Assembly (NCBI GenBank): GCA_016934825.1
Contig: JAFGSB010000060.1
Location: 1-64,000 of the forward strand
Source of the DNA: Candidatus Zhuqueibacterota bacterium
GTDB taxonomy: Bacteria > Zhuqueibacterota > Zhuqueibacteria > Residuimicrobiales > Krinioviventaceae
DNA: 64,000 nt
Direction: 5' to 3'
Shown here: positions 52,204 to 60,990 of the stretch, one piece after another
Layout: every line of letters starts with the position of its first letter
How positions within the stretch are numbered: position 1 is the first letter of the stretch
The notes under the pieces: model-generated
The model's input: the letters and a program-made list of their open reading frames with translations, nothing else
The model's database searches: none
Told to the model about the DNA's origin: nothing
Translations under genes and position numbers: made by a program

Positions 52204-55026
52204 CTATCGCAACAACAGCATTTTTCTGACTAACTGCTGTGAATCCGTGGACAGCCTGTAAAAATAAATTCCGGAGGGAACTGATTGTCCGGCCGAATCG
52301 CGGCCGTTCCAGATGATTTTATGGGTACCCGCTGGTTTTTTACTGTCTATTAACGTTAACACTTTTTGCCCGAGACTGTTATAAATATCAATACGAACAG
52401 GGGTTGCTTCAGGCAGTTCGTACAATATTACCGTTTCCGGATTGAATGGATTGGGGTAGTTCTGCGCCAAATTCAAAGAATGCGGCAGTTGAACAGGACC
52501 ATTTTCATCTACACCGGTCAATACCGAATCCACGGTCAAAATCATATCATCAATATACCAGCCGTCATACACATCTGCGGCGTCCGATTTCAGGTCAAAG
52601 CGCAGCCTGATATCACTGTTTCCTTCGACACAAAACCGGCTGAGATCTGTCACACAACGCTGCCATTCGAACGGCATTGTTCCGGTAAAAGCGGCAACCG
52701 TCTGCCAGTTTTTTGTATTATCAAGAACCTGTACAAGACCGCTGTCACCCTGAGCAAAAAGGTAAATATGATAAAATTCGAGGAAAGCGTTTTCATGTTC
52801 TGCCAGATTAAAATTTTTGTTCAGGGTCAGGACGTTTTCCTGATCATTTTCGTAATAGCCATCGGGGCTGTCGGTCATACAATTCTGACCGCTTCGGGCC
52901 CAAAAATGCGGATGCCAGCTTTTCCCGGTATCCCAGTAACCCAATAAACCCTCAAAATCATCTATAAAGGCGACTTTGTTAGTATATGTATTTAGCTGAA
53001 AATCCTTTTTATAGGCCGGCAAATCATTAATAAAAAATTGAACGGCCATTTTAACCTGACGCAGTCCGGCGGTCGAATCCACTTTTAAAATAAAACTATT
53101 GAGCTGTGATTGTTTTGCTTCCAAATAGGCCATGTTTCCGTAATCTGCCGTACTGTCAATAACAGGAATAATGTTGTCGGACGAGGATAACACGGCCGAC
53201 ATATTGGACACGGCGCTGCCGGTGCTTTTGACTAACAGAGAGAAACCAACGGTCTCGCCCGCTTCAGGATTACCATTGCCGTTACCCGATTGCGTATCGT
53301 TAATGGTATAGTTGAGGATTTCAAAGGGCGCGTAATCTGTTTTGTTGTCTTTGTTCAGTAATTTATTGGCCGGATCGATCAAAACCGATTCTATGGAATC
53401 CGGCAAACGTAACTGAAAACTTTGTGCTTTTTCCCACATTTGTATCGTGAGAATCGAATCAATCGAACCGTAATGAAAACCAATTTCCAGCGGCATATCG
53501 AATAATACGGAATCTGCCCGGCCCTGTTGGATTGTGGCATTCAGCACATAATCGCCCTGACCGGTTGGCGAACAAGACCAGGCGTAATCATAAACGGGAT
53601 AGCCTGGGCCGTAGATCCACTGATCAAAGAACCAGTCCATGTCCCGGCCGGAGATGTCTTCTACGACATTTTGAAAATCCGGCGTGGTTACACTGCCGAA
53701 CGCGAAACGCCGGCCGTATTCCCGCAGAGTTTTAAAAAAGGCGCTGTCGCCGATGACATTTCGCAGCATGTGCATCACGCAGCCGCCTTTTTCGTAGGTG
53801 TGCACGCCCCACATGACCGGGTGGTCATAAATAGGCAGGGTACCTTCGGCAGCTTCGGCATTAAAATACGCCCTCATATCTTCCCTGATATTTTTATCAT
53901 AAGCTTCTTTATTTTTAAATTTTTCAAAAAAAAGCGGTTCCGAATAGGTCGCGAAACCCTCATTCAGCCAAATGTCCCGCCAATCGCCGACCGTGACCCA
54001 ATCTCCCCACCAGTGATGGGACAATTCATGCGCGATGAGATAATCATAGGTATGTGTAGGCGAAACAGCCCCGGCAGGATAACTGATACAGGTCTGGTGT
54101 TCCATAGCGCCTTTGGGCGTCAGAGCGTATCCGACTTTGTCAAAAGGGTAGGGCCCGAACAAATCGGAATAAATTTCAACCATGGCCGGAACATTTTCAA
54201 AATGGACGGCCGAATTTGCAGAGTCGTCTTTTGTGGTATAGATGAAAACCGGTAATGTATCGTTGACGCTATATTCGACAGTAGCGTAATCGTTCATCGC
54301 CAGGCACACCAGGTATGTAGCTGTTTGATGATCTTCAATCCAGTGAAAAACTGCGGTTGAATCAACCGGATTTTTTATGTGTTCAACCAGCACGCCGTTT
54401 GAGGCCAGATATTTATCATACGGTACGATAAAGGTCATATCAAAAGTTGCCTTGTCCCAGGGTTCGTCGTGGCAGGGCATCCAGTGCCGGCCCATGGAAA
54501 CGTAGGACGTATTCAAACCCACCCCAAGAGTATAAGCATTACGATCGCCATAAAAATAAAAACCGCCCCAACTGTCTGAACCCGGTTCCGCCAGCGGCCG
54601 GCCGTGATAATATACAGTGACCTGAAAGGAATCGTCCTTTGCGTAAACTGTATCCAGAAATATGTTGAGAGTACTCGTTTGATTGTCAACAACCAGCTCC
54701 GTTTCGTCGCTGAAAGCACTGTCCACCCTGAGAGAAACGAGGTCCAGGTCGATATTGTCCAACCCGTTTATCAGACTCCTGGCATCTATGGTCACTTTTC
54801 CGTAGACCTGCTCAATGTCTGGCCGGATATCAAGTTCCAACCGGTAGCGCAGAACATCATAAGTATCTGATTCGGGAGTAGTTAATTCAATATGTTTTTG
54901 CTGCGGTGAATGCTTTTCGAGCATATAAACCGGTTTGTGGGATTCAACTTCGTCTAATTCAAAATCATTGGCTAAAACAAGGGTGGTAAACAGCAGAAAA
55001 GGAACTAAATAAAATGTTTTCTTCAT
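52204..55026 (-). CDS. M1-family aminopeptidase with FlgD-like sorting domain
   Basis: 940 residues. A signal peptide (about 1-19, ending LVLA) is followed by the M1 N-terminal saddle domain and the catalytic domain: GAMEH (306-310, substrate anchor), HELSHHWWGDW (His333, Glu334, His337) and NEGFAT (Glu356, third zinc ligand). After about 500 it continues with beta-rich domains, including a CBM/MAM-like region (about 700-830), and ends with the NYPNPFNPETVILY to KMLLLR domain. It removes N-terminal residues from peptides outside the cell. The C-terminus is closely like that of the neighbouring GH9 protein. Confidence 0.93.
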   Translation of the reverse strand: MKKTFYLVPFLLFTTLVLANDFELDEVESHKPVYMLEKHSPQQKHIELTTPESDTYDVLRYRLELDIRPDIEQVYGKVTIDARSLINGLDNIDLDLVSLRVDSAFSDETELVVDNQTSTLNIFLDTVYAKDDSFQVTVYYHGRPLAEPGSDSWGGFYFYGDRNAYTLGVGLNTSYVSMGRHWMPCHDEPWDKATFDMTFIVPYDKYLASNGVLVEHIKNPVDSTAVFHWIEDHQTATYLVCLAMNDYATVEYSVNDTLPVFIYTTKDDSANSAVHFENVPAMVEIYSDLFGPYPFDKVGYALTPKGAMEHQTCISYPAGAVSPTHTYDYLIAHELSHHWWGDWVTVGDWRDIWLNEGFATYSEPLFFEKFKNKEAYDKNIREDMRAYFNAEAAEGTLPIYDHPVMWGVHTYEKGGCVMHMLRNVIGDSAFFKTLREYGRRFAFGSVTTPDFQNVVEDISGRDMDWFFDQWIYGPGYPVYDYAWSCSPTGQGDYVLNATIQQGRADSVLFDMPLEIGFHYGSIDSILTIQMWEKAQSFQLRLPDSIESVLIDPANKLLNKDNKTDYAPFEILNYTINDTQSGNGNGNPEAGETVGFSLLVKSTGSAVSNMSAVLSSSDNIIPVIDSTADYGNMAYLEAKQSQLNSFILKVDSTAGLRQVKMAVQFFINDLPAYKKDFQLNTYTNKVAFIDDFEGLLGYWDTGKSWHPHFWARSGQNCMTDSPDGYYENDQENVLTLNKNFNLAEHENAFLEFYHIYLFAQGDSGLVQVLDNTKNWQTVAAFTGTMPFEWQRCVTDLSRFCVEGNSDIRLRFDLKSDAADVYDGWYIDDMILTVDSVLTGVDENGPVQLPHSLNLAQNYPNPFNPETVILYELPEATPVRIDIYNSLGQKVLTLIDSKKPAGTHKIIWNGRDSAGQSVPSGIYFYRLSTDSQQLVRKMLLLR

Positions 55027-55161: not shown

Positions 55162-55185
55162 GCGCAGAGGCAACCGCCTCTACGC
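55162..55185. repeat. Isolated hairpin in the M1/beta-CASP intergenic region
   Basis: GCG-C-AGAGGC (55162-55171), loop AACC, GCCTCT-A-CGC (55176-55185): ten bases per arm with one mismatch. It resembles in style the short hairpins around the ceramidase gene (58.5-61 kb). It lies about 140 bases upstream of the M1 gene and downstream of the metallo-hydrolase, with no T tract. Confidence 0.6.
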
Positions 55186-58546: not shown

Positions 58547-58573
58547 TGCGACGCACCCCGAGGGTGTGTCGCA
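58547..58573. repeat. Hairpin of 12 base pairs downstream of cmoB
   Basis: TGCGACGCACCC (58547-58558), loop CGA, GGGTGTGTCGCA (58562-58573), all paired with one G-T wobble. There is no T tract, so it is unlikely to be a plain terminator. It is the first of a run of hairpins up to 58671. Confidence 0.7.
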
Positions 58574-58592
58574 TGTAAAATTAATTATTCAT

Positions 58593-58638
58593 GCGAGTCT
58601 GTCGACTCGCGGCTGTCCATAAAGGGACAGCACTCCGG
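58593..58638. repeat. 46-base repeat, copy 1 (two hairpins)
   Basis: Contains GCGAGTC-TGTC-GACTCGC (58593-58610) and CTGTCC-ATAAAG-GGACAG (58613-58630), ending CACTCCGG. It is identical over all 46 bases to 60751-60796, in the same orientation. A related shorter form, CGATC-TGTA-GATCGCGGC, follows at 58658-58675, preceded like copy 2 by TTTTTGGAG. Confidence 0.85.
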
Positions 58639-58752
58639 TATATTCTTTTTGGAGTCACGATCTGTAGATCGCGGCAATGAAATTTAGATTCGGCAGCAGG
58701 ATGTGTCCCCAGTCGGGTCACGCTGTCCGAATATATTCACTTAACGCCACCT

Positions 58753-60105: not shown

Positions 60106-60750
60106 TTTTTCCTCTCCTTATTCTTGATAAATTGTTTTAATCATTTTATTTGTTGAAAGGATTAAAATCGAGACTATCAGGTTTCTTTTTCAGATTTCTT
60201 GACAACAATTTTTTTGTTTATAGAACGAGAGAGCTCAAGAAAAAGTTTTGATGGATTAACAAACATCATTTTGCCCTTAAAGATATGATTGATGTTCCAT
60301 GAAAGCAAGGATAATTTGTAAATTTTAATTCGTCTTCTATATGAAGAACATGAGAACAAGATAAGCACAAGATTGTGACTCTGAGGTAAATACTCCCCCA
60401 ATTAGGGGAAAAAGATCAAAAAATCTTTTTAATATCACATGGCACAGATGCATGAGCCTCTTCGCGACGAGAGTGGAATGTATCATAGGGACATTTCGAT
60501 ATGTCCCATCCTTCCATTCCGTTTTCCGGAAGGAGCAGGGGACTACTCGATGACCGGGGAACAGAAGCCCGTTGCCCTCTCGAGGGGGGATAAAGAGGGT
60601 ATTGACAAATATATTAAAGCAAAAAACTATCCGCAAAGGCAGGAACCCTTACGAAACTGAAAAAGCAGAGGCATGAGCTTTTGCGCGGGGAGAATGCTTT
60701 TTTAGAGTGCGTCGCCTTTATGCAACGCGAGTATAAATGATATTTTTGGA

Positions 60751-60796
60751 GCGAGTCTGTCGACTCGCGGCTGTCCATAAAGGGACAGCACTCCGG
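60751..60796. repeat. 46-base repeat, copy 2 (two hairpins)
   Basis: Same 46 bases, same orientation, as 58593-58638. The two copies bracket the ceramidase-family gene and about 650 bases of its upstream DNA, and their flanks differ on both sides. Confidence 0.85.
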
Positions 60797-60815
60797 GGTA
60801 TAGAACGAGCATGTT

Positions 60816-60981
60816 GTAGCGGGGCAAACCTCGCTACTAAAAAACGTAAAAAGATCGTGCCGGATATTTATCCGGAATACAGTATAAAGCCGGACATTCG
60901 TCCGGTAAATCTATCAGATTTAAGGATTTCCCAAAACAGAGTTTTGGGTACAATTGCGTTGCCAATCAGAGATTGGCAACG
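60816..60981. repeat. Array of six further short hairpins
   Basis: In order: GTAGCGGGG-CAAA-CCTCGCTAC (60816-60837, one wobble); CCGGATA-TT-TATCCGG (60860-60875); CCGGAC-ATTC-GTCCGG (60890-60905); TAAATC-TATCA-GATTTA (60906-60922); CCCAAAAC-AGA-GTTTTGGG (60930-60948); CGTTGCCAATC-AGA-GATTGGCAACG (60957-60981). All arms pair perfectly apart from the one wobble. The last ends nine bases before the stop codon of gdh, whose 3' UTR would contain all of them. None has a T tract. Confidence 0.8.
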
Positions 60982-60990
60982 ATAAAATGT

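What the first reader, a model, noticed from the sequence alone, without database searches (positions are those of the whole stretch)
60751..60981. Eight consecutive short hairpins in 231 non-coding bases
Each unit is a perfect or near-perfect inverted repeat of 6-11 bases per arm with a 2-6 base loop, placed head to tail with short gaps, and different in sequence. Several use the same AGA loop. There are no T tracts, so these are not terminators. Together with hairpins at 58547-58671, 60488-60507 and 55162-55185 they look like a family of tiny palindromic elements that accumulate in this genome, or a strongly structured 3' UTR for gdhA.
Basis: seen in the sequence. Interest (0 to 1): 0.65.

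Follow-up and report, generated by a model that had tools for sequence, protein, structure and literature searches.

The report
Stacked REP/RAYT mobile hairpin elements
The eight hairpins beside the glutamate dehydrogenase gene are a pile-up of tiny mobile DNA elements (REPs) from at least two families, each matched to its own transposase gene elsewhere in this Calditrichota/KSB1-type bacterium, and one family carries an unusual GGAG tag in place of the usual GTAG.

Summary
The hairpins are real and far beyond chance: 7 strict hairpins in 231 nt against a shuffle mean of 0.26 (max 3 of 2000). It is the densest of 317 intergenic pieces in 738 kb of this genome. They are not a conserved gdhA 3' UTR: three relatives with the same PPDK-gdhA gene pair have no array.

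They are dispersed REP elements. Family A (60700-60798) is an inverted pair of GGAG-tagged hairpins (GGAGTGC-stem-CTTTAT-stem) around a third hairpin: a REPIN, cut in half by the reported coordinates. Family B (60920-60989) is a two-hairpin unit with AGA loops. Stems of both covary.

The genome holds 35 A-like and 48 B-like copies. Seven A copies surround one REP-associated tyrosine transposase gene (RAYT_A), five B copies another (RAYT_B). Among relatives, all 6 close RAYT_A and all 8 close RAYT_B genes are flanked by the matching REP; no B unit lies at RAYT_A loci.

GTAG-contact residues known from E. coli TnpAREP are largely kept in this genome's GTAG-type RAYTs but changed in RAYT_A and RAYT_B. 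So: a known kind of system in a new variant. RAYT-driven mobility is inferred.

The parts
60700..60734 (+). REP A, degenerate left half of the REPIN (tag AGAG at 60704-60707, loop CTTTAT)
   Evidence: CM R1 hit E=0.003; same layout at C90:77-175
60751..60768 (.). GCGAGTC-TGTC-GACTCGC hairpin inside the REPIN A spacer
   Evidence: also at window 58593-58610, C23:20.7 kb and C2:24.3 kb
60764..60798 (-). REP A, right half of the REPIN (tag GGAG = - strand of 60791-60794; stem 60770-60789, loop CTTTAT)
   Evidence: CM R1 45.8 bits, E=1.8e-8; covariation
60700..60798 (.). REPIN A: inverted REP doublet with tags outward; folds as one long hairpin in ssDNA
   Evidence: DNA fold z=-5.1 and -5.4; outward pairs also at C90, C11, C143, C32
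58593..58640 (-). Second REP A copy with spacer hairpin, 3' of cmoB
   Evidence: 100% over 46 nt to 60751-60796; CM R1 E=2.5e-8
60816..60837 (.). Hairpin GTAGCGgGGcaaaCCtCGCTAC with GTAG at one end and CTAC at the other; no other copy found, RAYT unassigned
60859..60905 (.). Pair of CCGGAYA hairpins (60860-60875, 60890-60905)
   Evidence: travels with REP B at C170:52430-52560 (77% over 131 nt) and in part at C58:13465
60906..60922 (.). TAAATCT-ATC-AGATTTA hairpin, unassigned
60920..60989 (+). REP B: two-hairpin unit (60930-60948 and 60957-60981, both AGA loops, CAATTG in linker)
   Evidence: CM R2 80.1 bits, E=1.3e-11; covariation; ssDNA fold z=-7.3

Best explanation
The array is a stack of non-autonomous REP elements from at least two families, A and B, that landed independently next to gdhA. 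Shown: both are dispersed, structure-conserving, mostly intergenic repeats; each is concentrated around one RAYT (HuH/Y1) gene, in this genome and in relatives; copies of family A form outward-tagged inverted pairs (REPINs). Inferred from published work on E. coli, Stenotrophomonas and Marinomonas TnpAREP: when the DNA is single-stranded, for example on the lagging strand, each hairpin folds; RAYT_A reads the foot GGAG and RAYT_B reads the two-hairpin unit; the tyrosine cuts at a dinucleotide chosen by the foot and rejoins the element elsewhere. Intergenic sites downstream of genes tolerate insertions, so copies of different families pile up and decay. Because positions 3 and 4 of the foot (A, G) are unchanged, the expected cut site for A is still CT. 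The pile-up is most likely neutral for gdhA.
For: Dispersed repeats in the own genome: 35 R1 and 48 R2 hits, seven R1 around RAYT_A at C106:190636-191181 and five R2 beside RAYT_B at C153. Both proteins exceed the NCBIfam cut-off for REP-associated tyrosine transposase, with the HuH and Tyr motifs kept. In relatives R1 flanks 6 of 6 close RAYT_A genes and R2 flanks 8 of 8 close RAYT_B genes, with no R2 at 20 RAYT_A-type loci. R1 copy number is 27-85 in the six genomes with close RAYT_A, and 24 or more in only 5 of 54 others, Fisher p=9e-6. Covariation: A 98% of cells paired, score 0.70 against 0.23 shuffled and 0.20 or less slid; B 89%, 0.29 against 0.13. Intergenic 23/30 (A) and 26/30 (B) against 15/55 and 7/53 at control points. 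Turnover: at one REP B site the terminator of the upstream gene is conserved in the same-genus genome while the REP is absent; no array at gdhA in three relatives.
Against: No transposition, excision or cleavage was seen. No clean empty site with both flanks intact was found: flanking genes differ in relatives. Five genomes have 24 or more REP A copies without a close RAYT_A; one (G052) has 65 copies and no RAYT match at all, though it is 82% complete in 820 contigs. Two hairpins of the array (60816, 60906) could not be assigned to a family.
Confidence: 0.88

Rival explanations
1. A structured 3' UTR of gdhA: the hairpins are kept because they stabilise the gdhA mRNA or block exonucleases.
For: The array starts about 10 nt after the gdhA stop on the transcribed side and folds strongly as RNA; a weak terminator-like site lies beyond it at 60655-60630 on the - strand.
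Against: Absent after gdhA in three relatives with conserved PPDK-gdhA; the same units sit beside unrelated genes and around RAYT genes. A mild effect on mRNA in this strain is not excluded.
Confidence: 0.06
2. Rho-independent terminators or attenuators.
For: Intergenic and mostly downstream of or between genes.
Against: No T tract after the A and B units; terminator-like sites are no more frequent than in shuffles. At C170 a separate T-tailed terminator is conserved in the same-genus genome while the REP is not.
Confidence: 0.02
3. MITE-like remnants of another transposon, or recombination sites such as integron attC, unrelated to RAYTs.
For: Some copies lie in genomes without a detected close RAYT_A.
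Against: Family-specific flanking of two separate RAYT lineages across genera and a foot placed as in REPs. Target duplications and integrases were not tested for.
Confidence: 0.03

Closest known systems
GTAG-tagged REPs and REPINs with group 2/3 RAYTs (E. coli, Pseudomonas, Stenotrophomonas; PMC2817692, PMC3116915, PMC3733652, PMC8266576)
   Same: Short extragenic hairpins with a 5' tetranucleotide foot, inverted doublets, many dispersed copies, cognate RAYT flanked by its own REPs, several REP/RAYT pairs in one genome
   Different: Foot is GGAG(TGC), not GTAG or GTGG; loop CTTTAT is fixed while the stem varies; RAYT_A has changed GTAG-contact positions (Q95 to Y, E100 to D, H101 mostly R, one residue deleted)
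TnpAY1 subclass 2.6 with 'atypical secondary structures' (PMC6006769)
   Same: RAYT_B motifs NHFH / WQ / YIHNNP fit the table entry for 2.6, whose genes are flanked by atypical hairpins repeated in the genome
   Different: The published structures were not available to compare; here the unit is defined as two hairpins with AGA-type loops and a CAATTG linker in a Calditrichota/KSB1-type lineage
Caldithrix abyssi palindrome aAACCGTTgaAACGGTTt (PMC5317091)
   Same: REP-like intergenic palindromes in the same broad lineage
   Different: Different sequence, 18 nt, no tag and no RAYT link described in the passages read

Membership tests
REP/REPIN elements with cognate RAYT (general) | Short palindrome, many copies, mostly extragenic | tested here: met
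   35 and 48 copies; 77% and 87% intergenic against 27% and 13% at control points
REP/REPIN elements with cognate RAYT (general) | Copies flank a RAYT gene specific to the family | tested here: met
   RAYTs confirmed by NF047646
REP/REPIN elements with cognate RAYT (general) | Inverted doublets forming one hairpin (REPIN) | tested here: met
   Family A outward pairs, fold of 60700-60800; family B pairs are mostly -/+ and were not shown to fold jointly
REP/REPIN elements with cognate RAYT (general) | Cognate RAYT binds and cuts the single-stranded REP | not testable with these tools
   needs protein and DNA in vitro
GTAG superfamily of REPs | 5' foot GT[AG]G | tested here: not met
   A has GGAG (GGAA/GGAT in a few) in all 15 aligned copies; B has no such foot
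CGTC superfamily of REPs | CGTC foot | tested here: not met
   alignments of A and B
TnpAREP (RAYT) proteins | HuH motif, catalytic Tyr with Y---NP motif, similarity to 4er8 | tested here: met
   RAYT_A matches 4er8 E=1e-10; RAYT_B only E=0.06 to 4er8 but 2e-28 to NF047646; motifs
TnpAY1 subclass 2.6 | Motifs NH[LIV]H / WQ / YIH[QN]NP and atypical flanking hairpins | tested here: inconclusive
   RAYT_B has NHFH, WQ, YIHNNP and flanking two-hairpin units; the subclass HMMs were not available

The most novel reading that the evidence does not exclude
A RAYT lineage has switched its guide from GTAG to GGAG together with its reading pocket (Q95, E100, H101 positions and a one-residue deletion), and a second lineage has replaced the single tagged hairpin by a two-hairpin address read without the GTAG pocket, so that several REP/RAYT systems run in parallel in one cell without cross-talk.
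Probability: 0.45. Interest if true: 0.6.

Novelty: new variant of a known kind. Interest (0 to 1): 0.45.

Why it matters
How a RAYT recognises its own REP, and how several such systems coexist in one genome, is known from very few proteins. This lineage offers natural GTAG, GGAG and two-hairpin systems with matching changes in the transposase, which makes guide and protein co-evolution directly testable. It also shows that hairpin-rich intergenic DNA in uncultivated bacteria can be explained as layered mobile elements rather than as regulatory RNA.

Tried and rejected
Rfam over the window: only a tRNA. gdhA 3' UTR: rejected as a conserved feature by synteny. Terminators: rejected. Clean empty sites: two REP B neighbourhoods were traced into the same-genus genome; only one flank was conserved near the REP in each. 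Pattern searches for relatives of the GTAGCG hairpin at 60816 found no other copy in the sequence held. The named-genome scan returned only five close RAYT_A loci, all from Calditrichota/KSB1 or unnamed MAGs. Structure prediction was not used, as sequence comparison with 4er8 was enough.

Full report
Observation. Strictly counted there are seven; shuffles of the same 231 nt give 0.26 on average and never more than 3 in 2000. RNA folding is 7-9 standard deviations better than shuffles on either strand. In 738 kb of the same genome the intergenic hairpin density is 1.58/kb against 0.26 shuffled and 0.77 in coding DNA, and the site is the densest of 317 intergenic pieces. Intergenic calls rest on a simple ORF rule, not a gene finder.

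What the units are. BLASTN of the stretch against its own genome split it into dispersed repeats. Family A is CCGGAGTGC-stem-CTTTAT-stem. In 15 copies the foot, loop and loop-closing pair hardly vary while four inner stem pairs change on both sides together: 98% of cells paired, covariation score 0.70 against 0.23 shuffled and at most 0.20 slid. In the window two copies face each other, 60700-60734 (+, decayed) and 60764-60798 (-), with a GCGAGTC/GACTCGC hairpin between; the same layout occurs at C90. As single-stranded DNA the whole folds into one long hairpin (z about -5). This is the layout called REPIN in PMC3116915. Family B is a two-hairpin unit, xCCAAAAC-AGA-GTTTTGGx, CAATTG linker, then GTTGCCAATC-AG(G)A-GATTGGCAAC; its stems covary too (score 0.29 against 0.13). 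The CCGGAYA hairpin pair upstream travels with B at C170.

Copy number and place. Covariance models found 35 A-like and 48 B-like hits at E up to 1 in the own genome; the weakest of these may be chance. Among those with flanks to hand, 23/30 A and 26/30 B are intergenic, against 15/55 and 7/53 of points 700 nt away.

Partners. The genome has seven Pfam Y1_Tnp genes and 13 matches to the NCBIfam RAYT model. The well-preserved ones are surrounded by their own hairpins: RAYT_A (C106) by seven family A copies within about 450 nt of the gene, RAYT_B (C153) by five family B units, others by GTAG-footed hairpins (C23 GTAGGGTGCG.., C86 GTAGGTCGGG.., C100/C102 GTAGAGCGGATC..). The chance of seven of 35 A hits in such a stretch is about 1e-18. 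In 60 relatives, R1 flanks 6/6 close RAYT_A genes (the five in relatives are 64-70% identical to the query), and R2 flanks 8/8 close RAYT_B genes and none of 20 RAYT_A-type loci. A copy number follows close RAYT_A (27-85 copies in all six; 24 or more in 5 of 54 others; p=9e-6). These tests count related genomes as independent, so the p-values are optimistic; the family-specific flanking is the stronger evidence. Exceptions exist, notably G052 with 65 copies and no RAYT found in a fragmented 82% complete assembly.

Foot and pocket. The GTAG foot is read in E. coli TnpAREP by residues that include Q95, E100, H101 and R104 (W94 is conserved beside them; PMC6006769, PMC8266576). Aligned to 4er8, the two complete GTAG-type RAYTs of this genome keep W94, Q95, E100 and H101 (R104 is kept in one and is I in the other). 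The six close RAYT_A proteins have Y for Q95, a one-residue deletion, D for E100 and R, S or K for H101, keeping R104. RAYT_B has P, Q and Q at 100, 101 and 104. In a tree the A, B and GTAG proteins are three separate well-supported groups. Four more distant relatives that group with RAYT_A (L143, L144, L146, L149; branch support only 90/65) also have GGAGTGC at or near the gene, with other loops and stems. No RAYT paper in the library that I could search mentions GGAG; subscription papers were not available, so priority is open. The link between pocket and foot is a correlation within one lineage, not a demonstrated cause.

Turnover. gdhA in three relatives keeps its PPDK neighbour but has no hairpin array. 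At C170 the upstream gene's terminator is conserved in the same-genus genome while the REP B unit and CCGGAYA pair are absent. In both cases the far flank differs, so these are not clean empty sites.

Lineage. Close RAYT_A loci in named genomes are Calditrichota and candidate division KSB1 MAGs. REP-like palindromes of another sequence are known from Caldithrix abyssi (PMC5317091).

Mechanism. Published enzymology (PMC8266576) shows that TnpAREP proteins cut single-stranded REPs at CT (or CA) next to the hairpin and that the foot can select the cut site. For GGAG, positions 3 and 4 are unchanged, so CT is predicted. This step, and mobility itself, is inferred for the present elements.

Verdict. 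Stacked, family-specific REP/REPIN elements with their RAYTs: a known kind. The GGAG foot and the two-hairpin address are variants of it.

Noticed in passing
window 58547-58574: Hairpin TGCGACGCACCCCGAGGGTGTGTCGCA; a close relative lies at L045 (C106) and CGACGCCCCGGGG-type hairpins recur at C86, C23, C118: another candidate REP family without an assigned RAYT.
   Followed up: partly
window 60537-60560 (- strand): CCGGTCATCGAGTAG matches a recurrent motif CCGGTCGTCGAGTA(ACGAGTCCCGG) seen at 8 other places, one of them beside RAYT_B (L007:172).
   Followed up: partly
window 60445-60475 and 60666-60696: Two decayed copies of a GCAGAGGCATGAGCCTCTGC hairpin; an intact copy adjoins a REP B unit at C118:29.5 kb (L018).
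   Followed up: no
L001 (C117:75914-79204): RAYT-like gene next to a tandem array of about 50-nt units (GTAGG..GGTCCTTTTACAACAAGGGGCTGCAATCC..), a minisatellite-like REP array.
   Followed up: no
G026:C61 13626-19814: Several short ORFs matching only the first ~33 residues of RAYT_B at 66-70% identity, spaced 1-4 kb apart: repeated RAYT N-terminal fragments.
   Followed up: no
G042, G040, G045, G001, G000: 13-22 matches to the RAYT model per genome; 53 of 60 genomes searched have at least one. The lineage is unusually rich in RAYTs.
   Followed up: no
G052: 65 REP A copies but no RAYT match of any kind: either a missing contig or orphan REPs that outlived their transposase.
   Followed up: no
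window 52204-55026: M1-type aminopeptidase-like ORF with a C-terminal YPNPFNPET.. sorting-type tail.
   Followed up: no
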